IMG/VR virus record: IMGVR_UViG_3300048837_000831 | Span: 1-48,571 of that record | Direction: 5' to 3' (one strand) | Source of the DNA: a virus | DNA length: 48,571 nt | In this document: piece by piece, positions 6,427-31,326 of the stretch | Numbering within the stretch: position 1 is the stretch's first letter | Layout: every line of letters starts with the position of its first letter | Program-made: the position numbers and the translations under genes | The notes under the pieces: generated by a model | What the model was told of the DNA's origin: nothing | Seen by the model: the letters and a program-made list of their open reading frames with translations, nothing else | Databases searched by the model: none

Positions 6427-7023
6427 ATGACGATGACACTGCCGCCCCTGACGCACGTTGAACACGAGACGCTGCACGACTGCGAAGCGCAGATCGAGCG
6501 CGCCCTGGCTGACATTCGCAGCGCGTGGAAGCGCATCGGCGCGGCACTGGCGCGCATCCACGCAGGCCGGCTCTACCGCGAATTCTGCGACACGTTCGAT
6601 GAGTATGTCGAATCGCGCTGGAGCCTGCCGCGAAGTAGCGCATACGAATGGATTGAGGCCGCCGGCGTGGTGATTGCGATGGAGCGACCCGCAATCATCG
6701 ACGGCGAGATGCGCGTGATCGAGCCGCCCTCTCGCATCAGCCACGCAAGAGAGCTATCGAAATTACCGCCAGCGCGACAGGCCGAGGCGCTGCACGAAGC
6801 GCGGCAGGTTGCCACACGGCAGGGCAGGCAGGAGCCGACGGTCTACGAGGTGCGGCGCGTGGTGTTCGCAAAGTTGGACATCGCGCCGCCGCAGTCTCCG
6901 GCAGAAAGTGCGCGAGACAGACAGCAACGCGCCGTGATGGATCACATCCGGCGCATGTGGGCGCAACTGGACACGGAGAGCCGGCGCCAGTTGGCCGAAG
7001 AACTTCAGATTTGGGAATCATGA
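6427..7023 (+). CDS. Helical DNA-binding-like protein, 198 aa (ParB/DUF3102-like?)
   Basis: Starts 2 bases after the SWIM gene stop. The N-terminal half is helical, with a segment reading like the plasmid/phage HTH proteins that begin with a 'grape-size' helix pair: ALARIHAGRLYREFCDTFDE, then YVESRWSLPRSSAYEWIEAA. The second half has ISHARELSKLPPARQAEALH, which resembles the ParB/KorB HTH linker. It overlaps the methyltransferase by 4 nt, and its last codons contain that gene's AGATTTGGGA leader. A DNA-binding role is likely; the exact family is uncertain. Confidence 0.65.
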   Translation: MTMTLPPLTHVEHETLHDCEAQIERALADIRSAWKRIGAALARIHAGRLYREFCDTFDEYVESRWSLPRSSAYEWIEAAGVVIAMERPAIIDGEMRVIEPPSRISHARELSKLPPARQAEALHEARQVATRQGRQEPTVYEVRRVVFAKLDIAPPQSPAESARDRQQRAVMDHIRRMWAQLDTESRRQLAEELQIWES

Positions 7024-8582
7024 AGAAACGATCTTTCATCACCGTCACAGATCAATTTTGCGGGGCCGGCGGCTCATCCATCGGCGCTGTGAAAGCCGGC
7101 GCTGAGTTGCGCCTGGCGCTGAACCACTGGCAACTCGCAGTCAATACGCACAACGCCAACTTCCCGAACGCCGCGCACGACTGCACGGACATCAGTGCGT
7201 GCGATCCGCGCCGGTATCCAACGACCGACATTCTGATCACCTCGCCAGAGTGCACGAATCACTCATTGGCAAATGGCAAGCGCAAGCCGTCGAAGCAGTT
7301 TGATATGTTCAACCCGCATGCGGTTGATCCCGCTGAAGAGCGCAGTCGCGCAACGATGTGGGACGTGCCGCGCTTCGCTGAGTATCACGACTACCGCATC
7401 ATCGTCGTTGAGAACGTGGTCGATGCGCGCAAGTGGGTGATGTGGGATGCATGGCTGATGGCTATGCACGCGCTCGGCTATGAGCATCAGTGCGTGTATT
7501 TCAACAGCATGCACGCGCACCCGACGCCGCAATCACGCGACCGCATGTATGTCGTGTTCTGGCAGCGCGGCCAGCGCCGGCCCAATCTCGACATCACGCC
7601 GCGCGCCTATTGCCCGAAGTGCGGCATCGATGTCGACAGCGTGCAGAGCTGGAAGCCCGGGCGCTCGTTTGGCCGCTATCGCAAACAGTATGTGTATTGC
7701 TGCCCGAAGTGCGCATCAGTCGTCGAGCCGTATTACTACTGCGCATTCAACGCAATCGACTGGAGCCTGCCGGCGCAGCGCATCGGGGATCGGGCGCGGC
7801 CCTTGAAAGAGGCGACCCTGCGCCGCGTGCGCATCGGCCTGGAGAAGTTCTCAGGCACGCATCTGCTGGCGATGAAAGACAGTGCGGCGAAGGATTGGGC
7901 GCTGGGCTTGCATGAGCCGATGACCACGCAGGTTGCCAGCTCATCACAGCATGCGCTTGTGACGCCGTTCCTGATCGACACGCAGTTCACGCATTCACGC
8001 GGCGACCGGAGCGCAGACCTGCGCGAGCCGATGCGCACGCAGACAGGGCAGCAGTCGCGCGCGATTGTGGTGCCGCCATTCATCACCAGCTACTACGGCA
8101 CAAACGAGGCGACGCCGGCGACCGATGCGCTGCCCACTGTGACCACACACGACCGGCACACGGTTGTCATCCCGCCCTTCATCGTCAGCCAATACAACCG
8201 GCCGGCGGGCATTGGTGCAGCGGTGCGCGATCTGCGTGAGCCGATGCCGACTGTGCCGGCGATGGCAGTGCACCACGTTGTCACGCCGCCGTTCATCATG
8301 AACGCGCAGGCCGGCGCACAGCCGACTGCAATGCATGAGGCCATGGCAACGCTACTGGCAAGTGCCAATCACAAGTGGCTGGTTGAGCCTGGCGAATCAG
8401 TGAAAGTTGAGGACTGCGGCTTCAGGATGCTGGAGCCGGAAGAGTGCGGCGCCGCAATGGCATTTCCGTCGGATTACAAGGTGCTGGGCGGCAAGCGCGA
8501 TCGCGTGAAGCAATTTGGCAACGCCGTCACGCCGCCGGTGATGGGCATTCTGATGCAACGCTGCATGGAGTCGTTGCGATGA
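7020..8582 (+). CDS. Cytosine-C5 DNA methyltransferase, atypical motif IV
   Basis: 520 residues from ATG 7020 (ATGA overlap with the upstream stop). Motif I is DQFCGAGGSS (11-20), motif VI ENV (131-133), motif VIII QSRDR (171-175), and the C-terminal motifs are RMLEPEECGAAMAFP and VKQFGNAVTPPV. Motif IV, normally PCQ, reads S-P-E-C (C78) in ITSPECTNHS. A zinc ribbon (C198, C201, C227/C228, C231) is inserted, and residues about 290-460 contain four degenerate repeats of the form LxEPMxT...VVxPPFI. Expected reaction: SAM-dependent methylation (or another C5 modification) of phage DNA. It is coupled to the helicase downstream. Confidence 0.9.
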   Translation: MKKRSFITVTDQFCGAGGSSIGAVKAGAELRLALNHWQLAVNTHNANFPNAAHDCTDISACDPRRYPTTDILITSPECTNHSLANGKRKPSKQFDMFNPHAVDPAEERSRATMWDVPRFAEYHDYRIIVVENVVDARKWVMWDAWLMAMHALGYEHQCVYFNSMHAHPTPQSRDRMYVVFWQRGQRRPNLDITPRAYCPKCGIDVDSVQSWKPGRSFGRYRKQYVYCCPKCASVVEPYYYCAFNAIDWSLPAQRIGDRARPLKEATLRRVRIGLEKFSGTHLLAMKDSAAKDWALGLHEPMTTQVASSSQHALVTPFLIDTQFTHSRGDRSADLREPMRTQTGQQSRAIVVPPFITSYYGTNEATPATDALPTVTTHDRHTVVIPPFIVSQYNRPAGIGAAVRDLREPMPTVPAMAVHHVVTPPFIMNAQAGAQPTAMHEAMATLLASANHKWLVEPGESVKVEDCGFRMLEPEECGAAMAFPSDYKVLGGKRDRVKQFGNAVTPPVMGILMQRCMESLR

Positions 8583-10009
8583 AGACACTACACGATTACC
8601 GCCATTGGCGCGCCAATGTGATGGACCGGCCGGCAGCTTCAGGCTTCGAGATTGATCCTGGCATGCTGCATCCTTCGATGCGCGATGACCAGCGGGCCAT
8701 ATCGCAGTGGGCCATTCAACGCGGGCGCGCTGCGCTGTTCATCAATACAGGCGGCGGCAAGACCTTCAACGGCCTTGAATGGAGCCGCGTCATTGCCGAG
8801 CGCACAGGGCGCAAAGTGATCGCCTTCGCGCCGCTCGTCGTGGCCGATCAAACGGTGGAGGAAGCAACCGAACGGTGGGGCATTCCGGCTCGATACGTGG
8901 CAAATCAGGAAGAGGCAGATGCGGCCAGCGAGCCGATTCTCATCAGCAACTATGAGCGCATTGAGAACTTTGATTACAAGCAGTTTGCCGGCGCATGGTT
9001 TGATGAATCGAGCATCCTGAAGAACGCGCGCGGTAAGACGCGACACCTTATCAATCGTCTCTTTGCGCACATGCCATATCGCCTCGCAAGCACAGCCACA
9101 CCCAGCCCGAATGAGCATGATGAGCTGGGTAATCACTCGCAGGCCCTCGGCATCATGCCGTGGCACGAAATGATTACGCGTTGGTTTATCCGCGACTCGA
9201 ATCAAGCCGACACGCTGCGGCTGAAGAAGCACGCTGAAAACTCATTCTGGGAATGGGTGAGCGAGTGGGCGGTGTGCATGATGCGACCCAGCGATCTGGG
9301 TTTCAGCGACGCCGGCTTCGACCTGCCGCCGCTGAACATCGAGCACATCACGGTTGACATTGACCCAGAACACGCCTGGGCGCAGGGCACGCTCATTCCC
9401 ATGCAGTCGTTGTCTGCAACCGATCTGCACCGCAACAAGAAGCTGACGCTGCAGGAGCGCATGGAGGCCGCCGCCGCATTTGTCGAGCGCGACCGCAATG
9501 CCGCATGTGTGGCATGGGTAGAGCGCGACGATGAGGCCGACCTGCTCAAGCAGATGTTGCCGGAGGCGGTTGAGGTGCGCGGGAGCGAGCTATTCGATGT
9601 CAAGCGCGCCAAGCTGCACGACTTTACCCGCGGCAACATTCGCGTGCTTGTCACCAAGCCGTCGATCTGCGGCTTCGGCGTGAACTGGCAACACTGCTAT
9701 CGCAGTGTCGTGGCGTCCATGACCTACTCATTCGAGCAGCTTTACCAGCTCATCCGGCGCTTTCACCGTTTCGGCCAGAAGCGGCCTGTCAGTGTTGGCC
9801 TCATCAGTGCGGCCACCGAGGGCAACGTCGTACTGGCCATTGAGCGCAAGGAACGCCAGTTCCTTGAGATGCAGCAAAAGATGAATGACGCGATGCGCAA
9901 GGCTGGCTTGCTGGCCAAGCGCCGCACGTTCGATGACTACGACTATCGACCCGCGACGGCGATGCGTTTGCCGGCATGGTTGAACACAAAAGAGGCGAGC
10001 TATGTCTGA
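8579..10009 (+). CDS. SF2 (SNF2-like) DNA helicase/ATPase, 476 aa
   Basis: ATG 8579 overlaps the MTase stop by 4 nt. Walker A NTGGGKT (56-62), Walker B FDES (141-144), motif III STATP (171-175), and C-terminal motif VI QLIRRFHRFGQKRPV (about 385-400). The HRxGQ form is typical of SNF2-type translocases. The family uses ATP to move along duplex DNA; in phages it sits in replication/modification modules. The gene overlaps the downstream MTase gene by 8 nt. Whether it serves replication, transcription or the flanking methyltransferases is not visible from sequence. Confidence 0.9.
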   Translation: MKTLHDYRHWRANVMDRPAASGFEIDPGMLHPSMRDDQRAISQWAIQRGRAALFINTGGGKTFNGLEWSRVIAERTGRKVIAFAPLVVADQTVEEATERWGIPARYVANQEEADAASEPILISNYERIENFDYKQFAGAWFDESSILKNARGKTRHLINRLFAHMPYRLASTATPSPNEHDELGNHSQALGIMPWHEMITRWFIRDSNQADTLRLKKHAENSFWEWVSEWAVCMMRPSDLGFSDAGFDLPPLNIEHITVDIDPEHAWAQGTLIPMQSLSATDLHRNKKLTLQERMEAAAAFVERDRNAACVAWVERDDEADLLKQMLPEAVEVRGSELFDVKRAKLHDFTRGNIRVLVTKPSICGFGVNWQHCYRSVVASMTYSFEQLYQLIRRFHRFGQKRPVSVGLISAATEGNVVLAIERKERQFLEMQQKMNDAMRKAGLLAKRRTFDDYDYRPATAMRLPAWLNTKEASYV

Positions 10010-11114
10010 TATCAACGTTATTGACCAATTCTTCACTGAGCACGGTGCGATGTATTGGGCGGATTGCGTGGAAGGCGTGAAGGGCCTGCCCGACGAAAGC
10101 ATCGACTTTACGCTGACCAGCATCCCGTTCAGCGATCAATACACCTACTCTCCGTCGCGCCGCGACATGGGCAACAACGTGGGCGACGAGGGGTTTTTTG
10201 AACATCTGGAATGGCTCATCCCAGAACTGTTGCGGGTGACCAAGCCTGGTCACCTGTGTGCGATTCACTGCAAGGATCGACTGCGCTACATCTCGAAGTG
10301 GGGCACGGGTGGCATGAATCCATTCAGTGACGAGGTGACGCGGGCGATGCACAAGCACGGCTGGCAACTGTGCGCGAATGGGCGCATCACGATTGCGACG
10401 GATCCGGTGAGAGAGCGCAGTCACACCAACCGGCTGGGCCTTCGCTACAAGGATATCCGCGAGGATGCAACGCTGTGCGCGCCTGGCTTCCCTGAATACC
10501 TCATGGTTTACAGGAAGTGGCAGGGCTTGGACGGCAAGACTGCGTTTGCGCCTGAGCGCGTGACGCATGACGAAAGCGACTATCCACTCTCGCGCTGGCA
10601 GTTGGAAGCCAATGCGATCTGGCAATCTGACGGCTTCGTGCTGCCAACACGCGAGACCGAGCAGATGCCGCCTTACAACCACGATGCACGACTCAAGGCC
10701 TTGCAGGATGGTTACGACCTCGTGCCTGACGGCAACGAGTGGCGGCGCGTGCTCTTCACCGGCGGCAGATACAACGGGCCGCGCATTCACACGCAGACGC
10801 CATGGGTGTGGCCAGACATCAACCGCATGGACACACGCAACCTGCAAGTGGTGAAGGAACACGGCGACGAGAAGCACATCTGTCCACTTCAACTCGACCT
10901 TGTTGAACGCGCAATTCATTTGTGGACAAACAAGGGCGACGTGGTGCTTGACCCATTCGCCGGCATCGGCAGTGTGCCTGGCAGGGCAGTCGAGATGGGG
11001 CGCATCGGCATCGGTTTCGAGTTGAAAGAAAGCTACTACCGCTATGCATGCAAATACGTTGCTGAGGCTGAGCAGCTTGCCAAGACCGAGACGTTGTTTG
11101 ACATCGCAGCCTAG
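10002..11114 (+). CDS. Beta-class DNA methyltransferase (N6-A or N4-C), 370 aa
   Basis: Circular order of beta-class enzymes: catalytic motif IV near the N-terminus (TSIPFSDQY, residues 39-47; the usual form is D/S-PP-Y/W) and the SAM-binding motif I near the C-terminus (DPFAGIGSV, about residue 317). Between them lie LECK-like segments and a region with the ICPLQLDLVERAIHLW helix common to this family. The Ile in place of the first Pro of the catalytic tetrapeptide is unusual. It probably modifies phage DNA against host restriction. No cognate restriction gene is nearby. Confidence 0.88.
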   Translation: MSDINVIDQFFTEHGAMYWADCVEGVKGLPDESIDFTLTSIPFSDQYTYSPSRRDMGNNVGDEGFFEHLEWLIPELLRVTKPGHLCAIHCKDRLRYISKWGTGGMNPFSDEVTRAMHKHGWQLCANGRITIATDPVRERSHTNRLGLRYKDIREDATLCAPGFPEYLMVYRKWQGLDGKTAFAPERVTHDESDYPLSRWQLEANAIWQSDGFVLPTRETEQMPPYNHDARLKALQDGYDLVPDGNEWRRVLFTGGRYNGPRIHTQTPWVWPDINRMDTRNLQVVKEHGDEKHICPLQLDLVERAIHLWTNKGDVVLDPFAGIGSVPGRAVEMGRIGIGFELKESYYRYACKYVAEAEQLAKTETLFDIAA

Positions 11115-20917: not shown

Positions 20918-21853
20918 CTATCCACCTCGTGTGGCCTCTTTCGGGCTAAGGCCATACTCTGCCAGTTGTTCGCGAATGACCCTTGTTTTGCTATGCGCAT
21001 ACACCACGCGCGTGGTCTCAGGCGATGCGTGACCAAGATATGCCTGCACGCTCTCCAGCGGCATGCCTTCGTTTAGCAGTTGCGTGGCGCGGTAATGCCT
21101 GAACATGTGGGGCGAGACGTTTGGCACATTACACGCCTTGCCGGCTGTTTTGATGATGCGCCACCCAGATTCTCGCGTCAACCCTCCACCCTTGCCCCGC
21201 CGATGAGAGATGAACAGGGCAGGGAAGGCATCATCTCGTGAATCGCAATATGCACGGATTGCGGATTGCGCTTCAGGGGTGAGAAACAGCATGCGCTGCT
21301 TGTCGCCTTTACCGGTGATCAGCACTTCGACAGCCTGGCCGCCAGCGACATCTTTGCGCGTGAGTGACAGCACCTCGCTGATGCGACCTGCGGACGCATA
21401 GAGCGTGTGCATGAGTGCCCGGTTGCGCAGCCACTCAAGCTTCAACTGAGCCGTCCATTTGTCATTGTTTTGGATCGACGGCTCTGCGTCGAAATAGTTC
21501 ACTACATCGGGCAACTGCGCCGGCGCTTGTTTGTGCTTGTAGCCCTCGCGCGTCTTGCCTCTACGATCCTTCAGCCTCACCTCGGCTGCCACAAGGTCGA
21601 TTTGATCACCATGCGTGACACGATGCGCTATGAAGCGGCGCAATGCAGACAAATAGAGTTGCCGCGTGGATGGGGCAAACTTCTGACGCTTCAGTCGCGC
21701 ATTGAAATCCGAGAACGAGTTGGCGTCAAGCGGAATCTTGAGCGATTCAAACTTTGACAGCGCAGCGCGATAAGCAAGCTTCGTGCCATCAGCAGCATCA
21801 AGTCCTTCCAGAAAGGACATGGCAGCAGGGGAGAGTGAATTGCCGTTAGCCAT
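20918..21853 (-). CDS. int: Tyrosine recombinase / integrase, 311 aa
   Basis: SAM-like N-terminal domain (residues 1-105) and a complete catalytic set: R157 (AGRISEVL), K182 (GKGDKQR), H249-x-x-R252 (HMFRHYRA), H275 (LGHAS) and the nucleophile Y285 (VVYAHS). It is XerC/D-like in length, 311 aa without the arm-binding domain of lambda Int. It lies on the opposite strand to the late genes, between terL and the structural module, and shares a 46-bp divergent promoter region with the GIY-YIG gene. It may integrate the phage, resolve multimers, or belong to an inserted cassette. Confidence 0.93.
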   Translation of the reverse strand: MANGNSLSPAAMSFLEGLDAADGTKLAYRAALSKFESLKIPLDANSFSDFNARLKRQKFAPSTRQLYLSALRRFIAHRVTHGDQIDLVAAEVRLKDRRGKTREGYKHKQAPAQLPDVVNYFDAEPSIQNNDKWTAQLKLEWLRNRALMHTLYASAGRISEVLSLTRKDVAGGQAVEVLITGKGDKQRMLFLTPEAQSAIRAYCDSRDDAFPALFISHRRGKGGGLTRESGWRIIKTAGKACNVPNVSPHMFRHYRATQLLNEGMPLESVQAYLGHASPETTRVVYAHSKTRVIREQLAEYGLSPKEATRGG

Positions 21854-21887
21854 GCGTTCATCATATCACTAAATAGGTATTGTGTGT

Positions 21888-21893
21888 TATAAT
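21888..21893 (+). promoter_or_regulatory. Extended -10 promoter of the GIY-YIG gene
   Basis: TGTTATAAT (TGn-extended -10, TATAAT at 21888-21893) lies 7 bp before ATG 21900, so the mRNA would be leaderless or nearly so. On the opposite strand a possible TATGAT (integrase -10) lies in the same 46-bp region. Confidence 0.6.
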
Positions 21894-21899
21894 GAATTC

Positions 21900-22397
21900 A
21901 TGGAGATGGTGACACTAAAAGCGCTACTAGAAGGCGCAGACCCAGACGGTCAGATATATGTCCTTCGCGACAAAGAGTGCTTTTTGTATGTTGGCAAGAC
22001 CGAAAGCGGAATTGCATATCGATGGCTGAATGATTTTTGCGGGCGACTTCACTCGTATCGAGATGGCGGATGGTTTGGCAGTGATCGCGTCGCGAATCTA
22101 GTGATTGACATGATGCCTGAGTCTCTTGGGTGGGTGCTGGACTGCTACTCACGGGACGAGGCTGCACAACTGTTTTATCCAGAATACCGGCGCATCATGA
22201 TGAAGTGCGCCGGGCTTGATCTTGACTTCGCCATCGACAGACTTAATCTCCTCACGATTGAGCAGATGGCCATCACTGTTTTGCGCCCATGCCTGAATGT
22301 CTCTGGCAACTCAAAAGGAAACTCCCTGCCCGACAAATACAAATATAAGGGCAAGCGCATGCGTGAAGCCGTTGAGGTCGTGCAGATACCAGAATGA
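21900..22397 (+). CDS. GIY-YIG nuclease-domain protein, 165 aa
   Basis: GQIYVLRDKECFLYVGKTES (from residue 17) followed by R41 gives the GIY-YIG core: IYV, LYVGKT, and an Arg on the next helix. A Glu/Asp-containing part follows (EEAQLFYPEYRR-like region, about 105). The DNA is visibly less GC-rich than its neighbours, and the gene has its own promoter, which fits a mobile (homing-endonuclease-like) or moron gene. Start 21900 is preferred; ATG 21906 is possible. Substrate unknown. Confidence 0.72.
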   Translation: MEMVTLKALLEGADPDGQIYVLRDKECFLYVGKTESGIAYRWLNDFCGRLHSYRDGGWFGSDRVANLVIDMMPESLGWVLDCYSRDEAAQLFYPEYRRIMMKCAGLDLDFAIDRLNLLTIEQMAITVLRPCLNVSGNSKGNSLPDKYKYKGKRMREAVEVVQIPE

Positions 22398-23207: not shown

Positions 23208-24908
23208 ATGGCATTCGCTGACAGCGCAACGCTCAAGGATGACTTCAACCGGTCTGATGGTGCGCTCGGTGCATCATGGCCGGCGAAGGTCAGCACGTCT
23301 CACGACATCATGGTCGTGAACGGCAACAGACTGCGCGGCAACATCAGCGGGCTTGTGTGTTCTGCGCACCACACTGACACCATCGGACCCGATGCAGAGT
23401 GCTACGTGACGGTCAACACATGGCATCAGGACGGCTTGACGCTTTATCTGCGACTCACACAACCGAATGCATCAGGCCGGCAGCACTACCTTGCAAACTT
23501 TTCGGGCGCGACCCCTACAGTCACGCTATTGAAACGCATTAGCGGAGGCAGCACAACACAAGTCGGCACAACGCAGACATTCTCTATATCGAATGGTGAC
23601 AAGTTGGGGTTTTCTGTCGAGGACAGCGGCTCGGATGTGGTGATGCGTGCGTGGATATTCTCCGGTGGTGCATGGTCACAAATTCATAGCGTCACAGATT
23701 CAACAAGCCCGATTGCAGGCAGCGGCTACGCCGGCGTTGATACATGGCAAAACAACGTCTATCTTGACGATTTCTTTTCAGGCACTGTTTCAGCCAGCGG
23801 CAACACCTACAACGAGAGCGCGGTGGTGCGTGGCCGTGCGCGCTCTTTTGCTCTGGGCGGCATGATCTTCGCCCTCGCTAGTGTTTTGCGGGGCCGTGGC
23901 CGTGAAACATCAGTGCCGGCACGCATCTTTGCATCCTCCAGCGCCTTGCGTGCAAACGCCAGGACACCCGCACTCGGCGGCGCAGTGATCGCAGTACCGG
24001 TCATGATCAGAGCCAGGGCACGCCTCGCGTCCTTTCAGACGCTTCGCATCAGCGCGGCGTCTGAAATTCAGGCACAGGCGCGCTTGGTTGCATTGCCCTC
24101 GCGGGTGTTCGCCTCGTCCAGCGTGCTGCGCGGACGGGCGTTGCTCACCGGGGCGCCGGCGTTGATCCTCGTCGGCTCGTCTGCACTGCGCGCGCATGTC
24201 CGAATTTCAGACATTGCGAGCGTGAATCTGGTTGCACTGGCAACCTTGAAAGCGTCAGGCCGAATCGCCGCCCTGCAATCTCTTGTCTTGTCAGCACTGG
24301 CCGAGATCAACGCACAGGCACGCACGAGCGCATCCCCTTCCATCAGCGCATCGGGCGAAGCCGCGCTCATCGCTTCATCTGGCCGGCTTCGGCCTGCACT
24401 GGCCTCGCTCGTGATGGGCGGCATGGCTGAGATTGCCGCAGGCGCATCCGCATTCGGAAGAGGCGCGCTGGTGCTGGGCAATCGTGCTGTGCTGGACGCT
24501 GAAGTTCGACTTGCCGCGACGCCGGCCATGCTGATCGGCGCAGGTGTGCTTCTCCGCGCGTCTGGGCACGCTGAAGGTGCGCTTTCGGTCATCCACGGCG
24601 GCACGAGCGAAATACACGCCGCGCTGCGCATGGGGAGCGTTCCCAGCGCCATCTTGACGAGTGTTGTCCTCATGCGTGCCACTGGCCGCATCGCCGGCTT
24701 CGGCGGCATGGTTTTGCCGGCAGCGGTGTTCATGCGAGGCGCGCTCAGGACCCGGCCTGACGGCTTCACGTTTGTTGAGCCGGTGGGCGACGATCTGGGC
24801 ATCATCATCGGCGCGGACTACAGCCACGGCGTGCGCATGAGCAGCCGGCGCGCCTCTGCGCTTGAAGGCCGACGCGGCCCGGCGCTTGAAGGGAGAAACG
24901 TTCGATGA
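23208..24908 (+). CDS. Repetitive surface/tail protein with lectin-like N-terminus, 566 aa
   Basis: Residues 1-200 resemble a concanavalin/LamG-type jelly roll (LKDDFNRSDGALGASWPAKV, then LGFSVEDSGSDVVMRAWIFS, then YAGVDTWQNNVYLDDFFSGT). Residues about 208-530 hold roughly a dozen degenerate repeats of about 25 residues with the pattern S-x-L/I-R/x-A/G-x-A/G-R (for example SALRANARTPALGGAVIAV; SEIQAQARLVALPSRVFAS). Probably an elongated beta-structure displaying the sugar-binding head. The gene ends with a 4-nt overlap to the portal gene. Confidence 0.65.
   Translation: MAFADSATLKDDFNRSDGALGASWPAKVSTSHDIMVVNGNRLRGNISGLVCSAHHTDTIGPDAECYVTVNTWHQDGLTLYLRLTQPNASGRQHYLANFSGATPTVTLLKRISGGSTTQVGTTQTFSISNGDKLGFSVEDSGSDVVMRAWIFSGGAWSQIHSVTDSTSPIAGSGYAGVDTWQNNVYLDDFFSGTVSASGNTYNESAVVRGRARSFALGGMIFALASVLRGRGRETSVPARIFASSSALRANARTPALGGAVIAVPVMIRARARLASFQTLRISAASEIQAQARLVALPSRVFASSSVLRGRALLTGAPALILVGSSALRAHVRISDIASVNLVALATLKASGRIAALQSLVLSALAEINAQARTSASPSISASGEAALIASSGRLRPALASLVMGGMAEIAAGASAFGRGALVLGNRAVLDAEVRLAATPAMLIGAGVLLRASGHAEGALSVIHGGTSEIHAALRMGSVPSAILTSVVLMRATGRIAGFGGMVLPAAVFMRGALRTRPDGFTFVEPVGDDLGIIIGADYSHGVRMSSRRASALEGRRGPALEGRNVR
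24197..24213. other. GTGTCCGA-like palindrome, intragenic and imperfect
   Basis: TGTCCGAATTTCAGACA, one mismatch from a perfect dyad, within the repetitive surface-protein gene. It is the weakest member of the family seen at 4709, 11783, 16987, 34952 and 42241. Confidence 0.4.
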
Positions 24909-26881
24909 GCGAACTCATCAAAAACAGCGTGAGGCGTGAGGAGCTGCAGAACACCTACGGCATCACATCGCCGTGGCACTTCATCCAGAACCTCGCCGCA
25001 TTCACGCGTATTGAGCCGGACCTGCCGCCCTACTGGACACCCGCGCGCGACAACGCGCTGTGGGCAGCGGCGATGCAGGAAGGCACGTTTGCCAACGCCA
25101 TCAACATCGCCGCCACCAAGATGGCGAGCTTCGGCTATGAGGTGGACGGCGACGTGGCATCCCGCGTGCGGCGCGCGCGCGAGCTGCTGGGCAACTACTG
25201 GCCGACGCTCATGCGCAAGACCGTGCAGGACTTCCTCACGTTCAACAACGGCGCGTTCTGGGAGGTCGTGCGCGCCACGAAATCGCCGGCGTCCCGCGTG
25301 ATCGGCTTCATGCACCTTTCCAGCCGGCGCTGCATCCGAACCGGCGACGAGCGCGTGCCGGTGCTGTATATCGACAAGCGCGGCAAGGCGCATGAGATGA
25401 AGGCCCATCAAGTCGTGATGTGGTCGGACATGCCCGACGATGACTTTCTCGGCGTGGGGCGTTCTGCTGCTGACCGCGTGTATGACACGCTTTACATGGT
25501 CTCGGCAGCCCGCCACTATTTCAAAGAGAAGGTCGCCGGCCGCAAGGCGCTGGCGCTTCATCTTGTGAAGGGATTTGGGCGCGGCACGATTGAGCAGGGC
25601 ATCGAAGACGCCGAACACCGGCAGGACTCGGAGGGCGCGCTGGCCTACGGCGGCGTGGTCATCATCCCTGACCCCAACGACGGCGCGGCTTCATCCGTCA
25701 AGATCGACATCGCCGGCATCCCTGATCACTTCGACTGGGACAAGACGCTAGAAGCCGCGCAAATCGAATATGCCGCGGCAACCGGGCTTGACCCGACCGA
25801 CCTAAACCCGCGCCTCATCGGCAACCGTCAGTTGGGCGCCGGCGCTCAGGCGCAAGTGCTGGACGACAAAACACGCGCAAAAGGGCTGGTTGCGCTCAGG
25901 CAGGAAATCACCGCATTCCTCAACGACACCGAAACGTGGCATCCACTCCCGAATGCGGTGAAGTTTGCCTTCGTCGAGCGTGATGCGCGCGACGAGGCGA
26001 GCCGCGTTGCCAACGCTTCGGCGCGTGCACAGGTGAGCAAGACGCGCATTGAGAGTGGCATCACGCAGCCGGCGCAGGAGTTGCAGGTGTTAGTAGACGC
26101 CGGAGACCTGCCCGAGCAGCTCCTGGCGCGCGACCTGACCGACGCCGAATCTCTCACGGACGAAGACAAAAGCGAAGTGACGGACGGTGCGACCGAGTCG
26201 GTTGCGCCTGCCCTGTCGCCTGTGTCTGATGCCGGCGCGGTTGCACAGGTAATCAAGCGCGAGTTGATGGCTGCACTGGCTGTGCAGGATGAGGCCGGCT
26301 ATATCAACGCCGTGAACAAAGCGACGCAACTGCTTACCGTCGGCAGCAGCAAAACCAAGCGCGGCATCGTCGGCAAAGCTGAAGCGGAATACCTGAAACA
26401 GGTCACCCGTGATCTTGACGAATACGGCTCGGTGCTGGTTGCAAATTGCCTGAAACACATGCCACAGGATGAGGGCGTGACGGCGCAGACGCTGAAGTAT
26501 CAGATCAGCAACCGCAACGCGCGCGGGGTCACCCTGCGCCTGCTCGTGGGCAACAAGGAACGCCCCGATGTGGCGATTCGCGCCGTTCTGTTTGGCCGCA
26601 AGGCGTTCAGGGCGAAGGGCAATAAGCCGCTCGTGTTCACCATCGACGGGCGACGCGTGTTTGCGCGCGCTGTGCGAAGCGCACCGGCGCAGGACTGGTT
26701 GACCAAGGGGCTGACCGATTCTCAGAGCGCGTTTAACGCCATGCAGGAGCGGCTGGCGCAGAAGATGGCAACGACCTTGATTGACGTGTCGGACATTCCC
26801 GGCGCGAAGAAGATCACGCGCCGCACAAACCCGCCGAAAGCACCGAAGAAGCGAAAGAAGGAACAGGAGGGCGCGGCATGA
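24905..26881 (+). CDS. Portal protein with C-terminal extension, 658 aa
   Basis: The N-terminal 400 residues fit phage portals: ITSPWHFIQNLAAFTRIEPD, the clip/wing helices, RPDxV-like MKAHQVVMWSDMPDDDFLGV and GRSAADRVYDTLYMVSAARH. The portal is the dodecameric ring through which DNA enters the head. After an acidic hinge (about 400-430) comes a second domain (about 435-640) with VAIRAVLFGRKAFRAKG, TIDGRRVFARAVRSAPAQDW and a basic end; this reads somewhat like HK97-gp10 neck proteins. The gene is coupled to the following gp10-like gene by ATGA. Confidence 0.85.
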   Translation: MSELIKNSVRREELQNTYGITSPWHFIQNLAAFTRIEPDLPPYWTPARDNALWAAAMQEGTFANAINIAATKMASFGYEVDGDVASRVRRARELLGNYWPTLMRKTVQDFLTFNNGAFWEVVRATKSPASRVIGFMHLSSRRCIRTGDERVPVLYIDKRGKAHEMKAHQVVMWSDMPDDDFLGVGRSAADRVYDTLYMVSAARHYFKEKVAGRKALALHLVKGFGRGTIEQGIEDAEHRQDSEGALAYGGVVIIPDPNDGAASSVKIDIAGIPDHFDWDKTLEAAQIEYAAATGLDPTDLNPRLIGNRQLGAGAQAQVLDDKTRAKGLVALRQEITAFLNDTETWHPLPNAVKFAFVERDARDEASRVANASARAQVSKTRIESGITQPAQELQVLVDAGDLPEQLLARDLTDAESLTDEDKSEVTDGATESVAPALSPVSDAGAVAQVIKRELMAALAVQDEAGYINAVNKATQLLTVGSSKTKRGIVGKAEAEYLKQVTRDLDEYGSVLVANCLKHMPQDEGVTAQTLKYQISNRNARGVTLRLLVGNKERPDVAIRAVLFGRKAFRAKGNKPLVFTIDGRRVFARAVRSAPAQDWLTKGLTDSQSAFNAMQERLAQKMATTLIDVSDIPGAKKITRRTNPPKAPKKRKKEQEGAA

Positions 26882-27351
26882 GCAAGATCGCACACTTCAA
26901 GGCGGCAAAGAAAACGTTTGTCCGTTACCGGACGATCAAACGCGCCGTGGAAGACGGGCTGGATGAGGCTGCGCAAGTCGCCGAGGAATATCTGGCGAAG
27001 CCGACGACCTACTGGAAGGAGAAGGCGTCATTCGATCAATCGAAGACCGCGTGGACGCGCACCATCACGGCAACAGACAAGCGCTACGGCTGGATTGACA
27101 AGGGCACCCGTGCGCGCCTGATTCGCCCGCGCCGCGCGAAGGTGTTGCGCTTTGCGGCAGACAGCCGGCCCAAGACGCGACCGGGCACGATGACCGGTTC
27201 AGCCGGCGCAGCAGGCTACCCCATCGTGTTTTCGCGTGCCGTGCGGCATCCTGGCATCAAGGCGCGCAAGTTCAGTCAGCAAGCAAAAAAGCACATGGAC
27301 AAGCGACTGCCGAAGATCATGAACAAGGCGATCAAGGCGCATTTGAAATGA
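26878..27351 (+). CDS. HK97 gp10-like neck / tail-completion protein, 157 aa
   Basis: Basic protein with the gp10 hallmarks: YGWIDKGTRARLIRPRRAKV, LRFAADSRPKT and VFSRAVRHPGIKARKF (the VRHPG-K-R segment), plus a C-terminal helix. In HK97-like phages this protein completes the tail or neck. It normally follows the capsid and connector genes; here it sits between portal and protease. It overlaps both neighbours by 4 nt. Confidence 0.82.
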   Translation: MSKIAHFKAAKKTFVRYRTIKRAVEDGLDEAAQVAEEYLAKPTTYWKEKASFDQSKTAWTRTITATDKRYGWIDKGTRARLIRPRRAKVLRFAADSRPKTRPGTMTGSAGAAGYPIVFSRAVRHPGIKARKFSQQAKKHMDKRLPKIMNKAIKAHLK

Positions 27352-29897
27352 ACAAGCCAACCCTCACAAAACTCGTTCAGCGCGCCCTTGCATCTCGCGC
27401 CGTGGCCGAAGTGCGCACTGTGGAGAAGGCGCACACCGGCGCGATGGTGGCGCTGTATCCATCAATGGATGATGCAGAGACGCTTGCGACCGCTATGGGC
27501 AATGTCGAGTGGCCGCAGGGCGCAACTATCACTGAACCAAACGAATATCACATCACGCTCGCTTATCTGGGTGAATCGGCTGAGATTGACGAGTCGCGCC
27601 GCGCGGCGCTGTCCGAGACCGCAGAGCAACTCGTCACGCTTGAACTGCCGCCCCTGACATTCAACGGCGTGGCGCGCTTCAATGGCAGCGACGAAGACGG
27701 TGACGCGATTGTGATTCTGTTCAGTGAGCCGATGGTAAATGACCTTGCGACCGTCGCACGCCGCGACATGGGCGATGCGAGCAAGCATTCATTCCTTGCT
27801 CACATGACCCTGGCCTACATCCCGAAGGACGCCCCCACCCCGACCGTGCCGCCACCATTTGAAGCACTGAAGATGGACCGCATGGCGCTGGTGCTTGCCG
27901 ATGTGACGTTTGCAGAATTCAAATTGACGAACGCTTCAAGCAATGCTGTGGCACTCAAGGCCAACTTTGGCGCGCGCGCTGGCCAGGTCATCGCCGGCAA
28001 CCTCGCACGCGGCGCGGGCGGCAAGTTCACCGCTGCGGGCAGCGCCGGCGCAGGTGCATCGTCGGCGAGCACAGCGAACACGGGCCGCGCGCAAAAGCGC
28101 ACAGCGGCGCTCGTAGCCTCCGGCGTCAGCAGCGACGATGCTGCGGCACTTGAAACATTTGCCAAAGGCGGCACATTGTCCGCCGCTCAACAGCAGAGCC
28201 TTGAGAAGGCCGGCCTCGTGCGCACCGGCGACGATGGCGCGGCTCGGCTTGCCCCCAACGCGCGGGGCTTTCTCAGGGCGCTCCGAAAGGGCGACGCGCG
28301 CGCGGCGGCGGATGCGGCAGGCGCTGCACGCGATGCCGGCAACCGTCGCACCGAAGCGGCTGCACGCAAGGCCGAAGCCGCACGCAAGCGCGCCGAGCGG
28401 GAGGCGAAGCGAAATCAGCCGAAGCCGGCGAAGGGGCGCGCGCCGAAACAACCGAAGCCTGACCGCACGCCTGAGCAACTGCAAAAGATCGGCAACCGCG
28501 TCGAAGAAGTGGACGCGCAGATTGACGACGCTGTGACGAACGAACGCACGCTGAACAACGCGCAACTGACAAAAGCATTCAACCGGCTTGAAGAACTTGA
28601 AACTCAACTCGGCAAGCTGGGTGACGGCGATGCGCAGCGTGCCGCGCACGCGGCCATCGAGGCCGCGCGAGAACGGTTGGAAGCCATGCGCGATGGCAAG
28701 CCCGACCCCAAGGCGGCGCGTGAACCCATCCCGCTGGACGGTGACCGGCGCATTGCCATCGCCACCCGCGAGGCGACGCAGGACGCCGCCATCGAGGTGT
28801 TCAAGGACGCAAGCGGCGCGCCTCGGTGGCTACTCATTTCAAGCAATGCCTATCAGGACAAGGAAGGCGAGATCGTCTCGCAGGCCGCGCTGGAAGCGGA
28901 CGTGGCGCGCTGGTGGGATCGCCGTGAGAAAGGCATCACGCGCCGGGATCCTTTGCGCTGGTGGCATGTCGGCAGCGTCTTGACCGAGAAGGCAAAAGGC
29001 TGGCAGGACGTGGAAGCCGGAGAGGGCATGGATATCGGCCAATGCGACTTCAGGATGCTACACGGCCGGATGCTCGTTGAGTCGGGCACATTCGACACGC
29101 CGGAACTGGCCGAGGCGTTTGCGCCGCATATGAAAGCCCTGCGCGTGTCGCTGGGCTTCGCAACCCCTATATGGCAACCCGTTGAGGGTGTGTATCAGGA
29201 CATTCACAGTTTCGAACGCTCGCTCCTGCCGATGGCGAAGGAAGCTAACGCGCTGACGGGCGGCATTATTTTGAAAGGAGAAAAGACCATGACCAAGATT
29301 CAAGACAAAGTCAAAGCCTTCGCCAGTATCGCCGGCGATGGCGCTGCCAACACCCTTGCGGGCTTTCTGAACGCGGCTGAGACCGTGGACAAGCAGGCCG
29401 AGGGCGCTGGGCTGAAGCACAAGGAAGGCGAAACGGCACAACCTGAAGGCACAGTCGAAGGCGAAACCCTCACCCCGGCGGCCATCGAAAGCAAGGCCGA
29501 AGGTGACACCGCTGAGGGCGAGATGCCGGCTGAAGAGGTGACGGAAGAAGGCGACGAGGATCCCGCCTTGATGGTGGGCGACATGACGCCGCAAGAGCTG
29601 GCCGGCGCGCTGGCTGAGCCGCTTGCACAGGCGATGGCCGCCGCGCTCGCGCCGATGATGAAGGCGTTTGAGGATCAGAGCGCCGTCGTGAAGGGCTTGA
29701 GCGAGAAGCTCGAAAGTGTGTCGAAGGAAGCGAAGGCGGCGCAGGCGAAGGTGAAGGAGCTGGAAGGCGACGCGCCCACCGGCTACCGCGCTTCGCAAGA
29801 CACCGAAACCGTGAGCAAGGAAGACAGCATCGACCAGCAGACGGTGGATGAGCTGACCGCGATCGCCGCGCAATTCCTTGCGGCCCGAAAAAAGTAG
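27348..29897 (+). CDS. Fusion: 2H phosphoesterase + XkdF-like prohead protease + scaffold, 849 aa
   Basis: Residues 28-200 are a 2H (LigT-like) phosphoesterase with both motifs: H68-I-T70 (HITLAYLG) and H152-M-T154 (HMTLAYIP). Residues 215-460 are an Ala/Lys/Arg-rich, partly coiled-coil linker. Residues about 480-640 fit XkdF-like prohead proteases: RWWHVGSV (H540), GQCDFRMLHGRMLVESGTF, RVSLGFATP (S601), then FERSLLPMAKEAN. Residues 648-849 form an acidic scaffold domain that has its own ribosome site. The 2H part could hydrolyse 2',3'- or 2',5'-linked (cyclic) nucleotides, as T4 anti-CBASS Acb1 does; here this is inference. Confidence 0.85.
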   Translation: MNKPTLTKLVQRALASRAVAEVRTVEKAHTGAMVALYPSMDDAETLATAMGNVEWPQGATITEPNEYHITLAYLGESAEIDESRRAALSETAEQLVTLELPPLTFNGVARFNGSDEDGDAIVILFSEPMVNDLATVARRDMGDASKHSFLAHMTLAYIPKDAPTPTVPPPFEALKMDRMALVLADVTFAEFKLTNASSNAVALKANFGARAGQVIAGNLARGAGGKFTAAGSAGAGASSASTANTGRAQKRTAALVASGVSSDDAAALETFAKGGTLSAAQQQSLEKAGLVRTGDDGAARLAPNARGFLRALRKGDARAAADAAGAARDAGNRRTEAAARKAEAARKRAEREAKRNQPKPAKGRAPKQPKPDRTPEQLQKIGNRVEEVDAQIDDAVTNERTLNNAQLTKAFNRLEELETQLGKLGDGDAQRAAHAAIEAARERLEAMRDGKPDPKAAREPIPLDGDRRIAIATREATQDAAIEVFKDASGAPRWLLISSNAYQDKEGEIVSQAALEADVARWWDRREKGITRRDPLRWWHVGSVLTEKAKGWQDVEAGEGMDIGQCDFRMLHGRMLVESGTFDTPELAEAFAPHMKALRVSLGFATPIWQPVEGVYQDIHSFERSLLPMAKEANALTGGIILKGEKTMTKIQDKVKAFASIAGDGAANTLAGFLNAAETVDKQAEGAGLKHKEGETAQPEGTVEGETLTPAAIESKAEGDTAEGEMPAEEVTEEGDEDPALMVGDMTPQELAGALAEPLAQAMAAALAPMMKAFEDQSAVVKGLSEKLESVSKEAKAAQAKVKELEGDAPTGYRASQDTETVSKEDSIDQQTVDELTAIAAQFLAARKK
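29289..29897 (+). CDS. Nested scaffolding protein (internal in-frame start), 202 aa
   Basis: ATG 29289 is in frame inside the fusion gene and is preceded by AAAGGAG (29274-29280), 8 bases upstream, one of the best ribosome sites in the window. It begins MTKIQDKVKAFASIAGDGAA. The composition is acidic (EGDTAEGEMPAEEVTEEGDE) and ends in a coiled coil and Lys-rich tail, typical of scaffolds. It parallels lambda C/Nu3, where the scaffold is translated from inside the protease gene. Confidence 0.75.
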   Translation: MTKIQDKVKAFASIAGDGAANTLAGFLNAAETVDKQAEGAGLKHKEGETAQPEGTVEGETLTPAAIESKAEGDTAEGEMPAEEVTEEGDEDPALMVGDMTPQELAGALAEPLAQAMAAALAPMMKAFEDQSAVVKGLSEKLESVSKEAKAAQAKVKELEGDAPTGYRASQDTETVSKEDSIDQQTVDELTAIAAQFLAARKK

Positions 29898-29967: not shown

Positions 29968-31326
29968 ATGAATCTGCAAGTGAAAGAGAAACAGGCGCTG
30001 GCGCAGATGTTCGCTGAGGTGTTCAAGCACGTCGGCGTCACCACGCCCACGCACACACCCGCGCACGGCCCGTCCGGTGTGTTCAATTCGCAGGCCGACC
30101 CCGATGTCATCAACGCGATGCTGCTCCCCAGCCTCGGCTTGATGGCGCGTCTGCCAGTGACGCTGACCAACGTCATCAACCAGAACCACATGATCCTGAC
30201 CGGCATCACGGCCAACACCGGCACGCATCCGGCGACGATCTGCGAGCCTGGCAAGGTGGCCGGCAATCTCGCCAAGCGCGAGATTCGGTTCCCGTTTGGG
30301 AACTTCAAAATGTCGACTGACGTGATCGCGGTGAGCGAAGTTGGGCAGTTGAACAACCGCGCCGACTTCACCGACTTCCGGCTGCTGGGTGTGAACAACG
30401 ACCTGACGAAGACCAGCCCGACGCTTGTGCAAAACCCGCGCAACGCGCTCAACAGCGAATTGCAAAAGATGATGTTAGAGACGCAGATCGGCTGGGCGAT
30501 GGAGTTTGGCCGGCAGACTTTCACCGGCAACCCTGCAAACAACTCCGGCGACTACCGTGAGTTTCGCGGGCTTGACCTGCTCATCAACACGCCGTTCAAC
30601 GACGTGGACGCAAATGCCTTGCCGGCGAATGCCGCGCCACTGGTGCGCAGTGCGCTGGCCGGCAACCTCACGACCGAAGGCGCGACGGCCGGCCCCGCTG
30701 CGGTGAGCGAGATTCACGCCATTTCGCGCGCCCTGAAACTGCGTGCCAAGCGCACGGGTCTGGAGCCGGTGAAGTGGGCGCTGGTGATGAGCGCGAATGC
30801 GTTCTATGAACTGTCTGCGGTGTGGCCGTGCAGCTACTACACGTATCGCTGCGGAGGCTCGACATCTGCGCCAAACATGACGAGTGCGAGCGACTTGCGC
30901 AGCGCGGTGGACGACATGCGCAACGGCCAGTATCTGCTGGTGGACGGCGAGCGACTGGAAGTGATCATCGACGATGGCATTGTGGAGACCGAAGGCGTAG
31001 GCGTTGACCCCAACACCGGCGCGGGCAACTTCACCTCCGGCGTTTACTTCGTGCCGCTGACTGGCGCTGGCCGACCGCTGACCTATGTCGAGTCGTTCAA
31101 CTTCAACAACCCGATGGCGCGTGAAGTGATTGAGGCGATGGGCAAGCGCGACAAGTTCGCCTTTCAGGATGGCGGGCGCTTCATGTGGATTTTCCGCGAG
31201 AACGCAGAGTGCCTGAGCGCGGATGTGCGTGAGCGCAGCCGCATCATTCTGCTGGCGCCCTTCCTGGCTGCTCGCATCGCATCGATTCGCTATCGCCCGG
31301 CCATCGTTGTGCCGACGGGCTTCTAG
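29968..31326 (+). CDS. Major capsid protein (HK97-fold), 452 aa
   Basis: CAGGAG ribosome site. Directly follows the protease/scaffold gene, as MCP genes do. Sequence features: helical N-arm, FGNFKMSTDVIAVSEVGQLN (E-loop/strand region), GWAMEFGRQTFTGNPANNSG, EIHAISRALKLRAKRTGLEP (spine helix), WALVMSANAFYELSAVWP and DGERLEVIIDDGIVETEG (P-domain strands). The C-terminus is APFLAARIASIRYRP. The length is somewhat above the usual 300-400. The N-terminal arm may be cleaved by the protease. Confidence 0.88.
   Translation: MNLQVKEKQALAQMFAEVFKHVGVTTPTHTPAHGPSGVFNSQADPDVINAMLLPSLGLMARLPVTLTNVINQNHMILTGITANTGTHPATICEPGKVAGNLAKREIRFPFGNFKMSTDVIAVSEVGQLNNRADFTDFRLLGVNNDLTKTSPTLVQNPRNALNSELQKMMLETQIGWAMEFGRQTFTGNPANNSGDYREFRGLDLLINTPFNDVDANALPANAAPLVRSALAGNLTTEGATAGPAAVSEIHAISRALKLRAKRTGLEPVKWALVMSANAFYELSAVWPCSYYTYRCGGSTSAPNMTSASDLRSAVDDMRNGQYLLVDGERLEVIIDDGIVETEGVGVDPNTGAGNFTSGVYFVPLTGAGRPLTYVESFNFNNPMAREVIEAMGKRDKFAFQDGGRFMWIFRENAECLSADVRERSRIILLAPFLAARIASIRYRPAIVVPTGF

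What the first reader, a model, noticed from the sequence alone, without database searches (positions are those of the whole stretch)
27348..29897. 2H phosphoesterase fused to a prohead protease and scaffold: a virion-carried anti-defence enzyme?
The N-terminal 200 residues carry both HxT motifs of the 2H superfamily (H68-T70, H152-T154), joined by an Ala/Lys-rich linker to an XkdF-like protease and scaffold. T4 Acb1, a 2H enzyme, destroys CBASS cyclic nucleotides. Fusion to the protease would place the enzyme inside the prohead, release it by self-cleavage, and perhaps let it enter the cell with the DNA before host signalling starts. I know of no described system with this logic, though the fusion may exist elsewhere unannotated.
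Basis: partly seen in the sequence, partly recalled or inferred. Interest (0 to 1): 0.82.

Follow-up and report, generated by a model that had tools for sequence, protein, structure and literature searches.

The report
2H phosphodiesterase fused to prohead protease
A phage head-assembly protease carries an extra RNA/nucleotide-cutting enzyme domain at its front end; many phages attach this domain to one head protein or another, probably so that it is packed in the particle and acts as soon as the DNA enters the cell, an idea already published but never tested.

Summary
ORF 27348-29897 (849 aa) is one uninterrupted protein. Residues 30-195 form a high-confidence 2H (LigT-like) fold with H68/T70 and H152/T154; residues 468-662 form a prohead-protease fold (T4 gp21 / herpes assemblin); an acidic scaffold-like tail follows. 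The "linker" is a conserved region of the protease family. I found 115 viral-contig loci with this 2H domain, mostly in large proteins, many with head-protein domains, including five further fusions to prohead proteases of three kinds. New evidence: in a syntenic relative the closest 2H domain (54-59% identical) sits inside the portal protein two genes upstream, while its protease lacks it. So the domain moved between two head proteins, which favours head cargo over a special role of the protease. The domain is nearer LigT/ThpR than Acb1; anti-CBASS activity is untested. In passing: an Acb1-like 2H protein of phage CBB was already detected in purified virions by mass spectrometry.

The parts
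27348..29897 (+). Whole fusion gene: 2H domain - basic middle region - prohead protease - acidic scaffold-like tail (849 aa)
27432..27938 (+). 2H phosphoesterase domain, residues about 29-197; HxT motifs at 27549-27557 (H68-T70) and 27801-27809 (H152-T154)
   Evidence: Pfam/PHROG, alignment A5, AF2 model, LigT Z 16-17
27960..28712 (+). Basic, Ala-rich middle region, residues about 205-455, conserved in protease homologues without 2H; includes a weak winged-helix-like element
28749..29333 (+). Prohead protease domain, residues 468-662; H540 and S601 (invariant in 34 sequences) are the likely catalytic pair; S625 also invariant
   Evidence: alignment A6, AF2 model, T4 gp21 Z 11.2, residue check
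29334..29894 (+). Acidic scaffold-like tail, residues 663-849 (role inferred)
24905..26881 (+). Portal protein without 2H; in the syntenic relative L032 (also L019) the 2H domain lies inside this protein
26878..27351 (+). Small late gene between portal and fusion gene; 40% identical to its counterpart in L032
29968..31326 (+). Putative major capsid protein, by position and 41% identity to the gene in the same place in L032 (inference)
   Evidence: no Pfam/PHROG match

Best explanation
The gene makes a prohead protease/scaffold protein that carries an active-looking 2H phosphodiesterase as N-terminal cargo. The protease and scaffold parts place the domain inside the prohead (inferred from what prohead proteases do). 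On maturation the protease cuts itself or its neighbours and some 2H domain stays in the capsid (inferred). It enters the cell with the DNA and cuts a phosphodiester in a nucleotide or RNA: cyclic or 2'-5' oligonucleotide alarm signals, or 2',3'-cyclic RNA ends (inferred). Shown here: the fold, the tetrad and its conservation, the protease fold, and the occurrence of the same domain on portal, MuF and protease proteins, with a switch of carrier between two syntenic phages. Such switching is expected if delivery in the head is the selected trait and the carrier is interchangeable.
For: 2H fold and tetrad. Protease fold and invariant H/S. The closest 2H lies in the portal of a phage with the same gene order; SH-aLRT 99 for window + L019. 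The 2H parts are more alike (54%) than portal (44%), protease (41%) or capsid protein (41%). 115 of 119 pattern loci hold the 2H domain; Pfam MuF in 35 of 98 such ORFs, with portal matches in others. Other protease fusions: L045, same protease family; L010, true XkdF E 3e-25; L017, L064, L114, Mu-like protease (L114 below cut-off). 2H proteins stand among head genes in Cantare, Gray, Zipp, BabyGotBac, Waltz and I3. Packaging was predicted before (PMC5512222, PMC9503650). A stand-alone Acb1-like 2H protein was found in purified CBB virions (7 peptides, 60.4% coverage, PMC5259590 Table 4).
Against: No virion proteomics or biochemistry for this protein or for any 2H head fusion that I could find. 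Prohead proteases usually digest themselves and leave the head (own knowledge), so the cargo could be lost. Substrate unknown. In 32 of the 38 protease loci and in 1 more cut short no 2H was seen in the DNA held, so the domain is dispensable; some of those loci do not include the portal gene.
Confidence: 0.55

Rival explanations
1. RNA-end healing: the 2H domain opens 2',3'-cyclic phosphate ends of RNAs (for example tRNAs cut by defence nucleases), as LigT/ThpR-type enzymes do; the head fusion serves early delivery or is incidental.
For: Nearest solved relatives by profile and fold are LigT/ThpR 2',3'-cyclic phosphodiesterases.
Against: No RNA ligase or kinase seen among the window proteins scanned (not every ORF was scanned). 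Iyer et al. 2017 never saw this type of 2H domain with RNA ligases.
Confidence: 0.2
2. The domain is an RNase or RNA-binding part that acts on host RNA or during head assembly (Usb1-like), not on immune signals.
For: Iyer et al. 2017 propose an RNase role by analogy with PBECR-MuF fusions; human Usb1 Z 15.
Against: Most head modules of the same protease family show no 2H, so assembly does not need it.
Confidence: 0.13
3. The enzyme works in the cytosol late in infection, from unassembled fusion protein, and is destroyed on maturation; it is never delivered.
For: Prohead proteases normally self-degrade (own knowledge); the domain is on a late-module gene.
Against: Recurrent fusion to portal and MuF proteins, which are components of the finished head.
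Confidence: 0.12

Closest known systems
2H-MuF and 2H-portal fusions of tailed phages (PMC5512222, 2017; PMC9503650, 2022)
   Same: 2H domain fused to a head-interior protein; same proposed use (packaged, injected, acts on nucleotides or RNA)
   Different: Here the carrier is the prohead protease; those papers name 2H fusions to MuF and portal, and a head-peptidase fusion for Nudix
Polyvalent proteins with a C-terminal assemblin-like peptidase (PMC5512222)
   Same: Effector part N-terminal, assemblin-fold protease C-terminal, predicted processing during assembly
   Different: Only one recognisable effector domain, and a scaffold-like tail follows the protease
Actinophage proteins annotated RNA ligase / head maturation protease (Zipp gp18, BabyGotBac gp11, Cantare gp9)
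   Same: Homologous 2H domain in a head-module protein
   Different: Other carriers (MuF in BabyGotBac, stand-alone in Cantare); about 28-40% identity over the aligned part
Acb1 anti-CBASS phosphodiesterase
   Same: 2H fold and HxT/HxT tetrad (Z 13.6)
   Different: Stand-alone, about 150 aa; Pfam Acb1 does not match the window protein; lid and base-stacking residues not compared

Membership tests
2H phosphoesterase superfamily | Two HxT/S motifs | tested here: met
   H68-T70, H152-T154
2H phosphoesterase superfamily | 2H fold | tested here: met
   AF2 pLDDT 87; LigT Z 16-17
2H phosphoesterase superfamily | Phosphodiesterase activity | not testable with these tools
   needs an assay
Acb1 (anti-CBASS) | Match to the Pfam Acb1 model PF23474 | tested here: not met
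   absent at E<=1 for the window protein; a few relatives match below cut-off
Acb1 (anti-CBASS) | Aromatic base-stacking residues and C-terminal lid | not tested
   features from PMC9117128; no residue-level superposition made
Acb1 (anti-CBASS) | Hydrolysis of cyclic di/trinucleotides | not testable with these tools
   needs an assay
XkdF / Peptidase_S78_2 | Match to PF14550 | tested here: not met
   no match at E<=1
T4 gp21 / herpesvirus assemblin-type prohead proteases | Fold | tested here: met
   T4 gp21 Z 11.2 over 133 residues, herpes proteases Z 5-7
T4 gp21 / herpesvirus assemblin-type prohead proteases | Conserved catalytic His and Ser | tested here: met
   H540, S601 invariant in 34 sequences; catalytic role inferred
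Packaged phage effectors (polyvalent proteins) | Effector domain fused to a head-module protein | tested here: met
Packaged phage effectors (polyvalent proteins) | Presence in the virion and injection | not testable with these tools
   needs virion mass spectrometry and infection assays

The most novel reading that the evidence does not exclude
The phage loads a nucleotide-signal-degrading enzyme into its head by fusing it to the maturation protease; the protease frees it inside the capsid and it is injected, so that immune signals are destroyed before any phage gene is expressed.
Probability: 0.2. Interest if true: 0.72.

Novelty: new variant of a known kind. Interest (0 to 1): 0.42.

Why it matters
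If delivery is shown, phages would pre-empt nucleotide-based immunity with an enzyme carried in the particle, and many 'RNA ligase' and 'head maturation protease' labels in actinophage genomes would need re-reading. The same domain on the portal of one phage and on the protease of a syntenic relative gives a natural test of what the head fusion is for.

Tried and rejected
Single-protein scans of viral contigs with the whole protein, the protease or the capsid protein found no relatives; a DNA pattern for HTGxM(V/I)ALxP and a protease profile did. The 8-sequence 2H alignment was too diverse for a scan. A genome-contig scan with the protease profile found no prophage relatives. tblastn with the protease domain in named phages gave nothing significant. 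An internal start that would make a separate protease: only two weak candidates, both inside the conserved middle region; rejected. RNA structure at the start codon: none (z -0.19). Sequence-profile search of solved structures with the protease: nothing meaningful. Searches for virion proteomics of a fused 2H protein found none. No AF2 model of the whole protein, of the middle region or of a portal-2H fusion was made.

Full report
What is there. The gene at 27348-29897 is a single 849-aa frame in a late module: terminase, portal 24905-26881, a small gene, the fusion gene, then a putative capsid protein 29968-31326. The window is a virus contig of 48,571 bases whose completeness is not stated.

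The N-terminal domain. Pfam 2_5_RNA_ligase2 and LigT_PEase match just under their cut-offs and PHROG 2659 at 4.3e-9. tblastn of residues 1-205 against named phages lists 271 records at a loose limit (not all significant), mostly actinophages, with E-values down to 3e-8, annotated RNA ligase, head maturation protease, or capsid maturation protease and MuF-like fusion protein. In an alignment of eight, the seven invariant columns include the H and T of both motifs. A DNA pattern for an upstream motif, HTGxM(V/I)ALxP, gave 119 viral-contig loci before the scan stopped at its limit; 115 hold the 2H domain by profile, with a median ORF length of 797 aa in a reduced set of 107. Among 75 of them the first H is kept in 74 and the second in all; T154 is C in 14 and A in 4. 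The AF2 model (pLDDT 87) matches E. coli LigT, the D. radiodurans CPDase and Thermus TT0787 at Z 16-17 and Acb1 at 13.6. By sequence profile LigT/ThpR types lead and Acb1 is weak.

The rest of the protein. An alignment of 34 protease domains has invariant H and S (window H540, S601). Its model (pLDDT 84) matches T4 gp21 at Z 11.2 and then herpesvirus proteases at Z 5-7. Pfam does not hold this family. The stretch between the two enzymes is conserved in a protease homologue that has no 2H domain, so it belongs to the protease protein and is not a linker made for the fusion.

The domain changes carriers. In L032 (and in L019, the same sequence from a second metagenome) the gene order is the same and portal, small gene, protease and capsid protein are 40-44% identical to the window's. 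There the 2H domain is inside the portal, between its core and its conserved C-terminal part, and the protease begins with the middle region. The two 2H domains are 54-59% identical and are sisters on a tree of 75 (SH-aLRT 99; quick search, no bootstrap). In L093 and L096 the 2H is also at the portal C terminus and the same protease family stands alone. L045 (also fetched as L155) has a second N-terminal 2H on this protease family. Most other loci of the protease family show no 2H in the DNA held, though some do not include the portal. Other carriers: MuF in 35 of 98 ORFs; XkdF protease in L010; Mu-like protease in L017, L064 and, below cut-off, L114; a Mu-type portal with a weak MuF match around one 2H in L028; an ADP-ribosyltransferase in L013. 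About 60% of the 107 ORFs remain unclassified by my local profiles. The direction of the moves is not resolved.

Reading. A domain that keeps its active site while changing carriers among head proteins is best explained as head cargo. That it is injected, and what it cuts, are inferences. [quoted passage not shown] The first paper also describes assemblin-like peptidases at the C terminus of polyvalent proteins, and the second a Nudix domain fused to the head serine peptidase. Viral LigT-like enzymes can cut cGAMP (PMC9117128, PMC11410667). The present case is therefore a new variant: a 2H-protease fusion, plus a well-resolved switch of carrier between portal and protease in syntenic phages.

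A side result bears on delivery in general. CBB_118 of Pectobacterium phage CBB has both motifs, matches solved Acb1 proteins (E 3.4e-6), and was found in purified virions with 7 unique peptides and 60.4% coverage, labelled only 'structural protein' (PMC5259590 Table 4). Carry-over of a soluble enzyme cannot be excluded, and its neighbourhood (a sirtuin and a Nudix-type gene) resembles one that Iyer et al. 2022 read as RNA repair.

Scores. That the domain is an intact 2H enzyme fused to a prohead protease is nearly certain. That it is a packaged effector I put at 0.55, and that it specifically removes immune nucleotide signals after release by the protease at 0.2. Because the main idea and most of the architecture are published, interest is moderate.

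Noticed in passing
L166:3923-4369 (KU574722.1 59615-60061): CBB_118, an Acb1-like 2H protein (PDB Acb1 E 3.4e-6), was detected in purified CBB virions by mass spectrometry (7 peptides, 60.4% coverage, PMC5259590) but is called only 'structural protein'; homologues at 72-97% identity occur in several other jumbo phages.
   Followed up: partly
alignment A5; e.g. L055, L015, L105, L107: About a quarter of the 2H domains (18 of 75) have C or A in place of the second catalytic T while keeping the His residues: a subgroup with perhaps altered activity.
   Followed up: no
window 6957-11114: Two DNA methyltransferase-like genes flank a helicase-like gene, perhaps a modification or anti-restriction unit.
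   Followed up: no
window 20918-21853 (-) and 21882-22397 (+): A phage integrase on the minus strand and a gene that looks like a GIY-YIG protein by eye lie between the terminase and the fibre/portal genes.
   Followed up: no
L045:3-3547: The second phage with a 2H fusion on this protease family also has an ADP-ribosyltransferase-domain gene and an intein-like stretch in its MuF gene just upstream.
   Followed up: no
L028:702-3842: One 1047-aa protein joins a Mu-type portal, a 2H domain and a weakly matching MuF domain.
   Followed up: no
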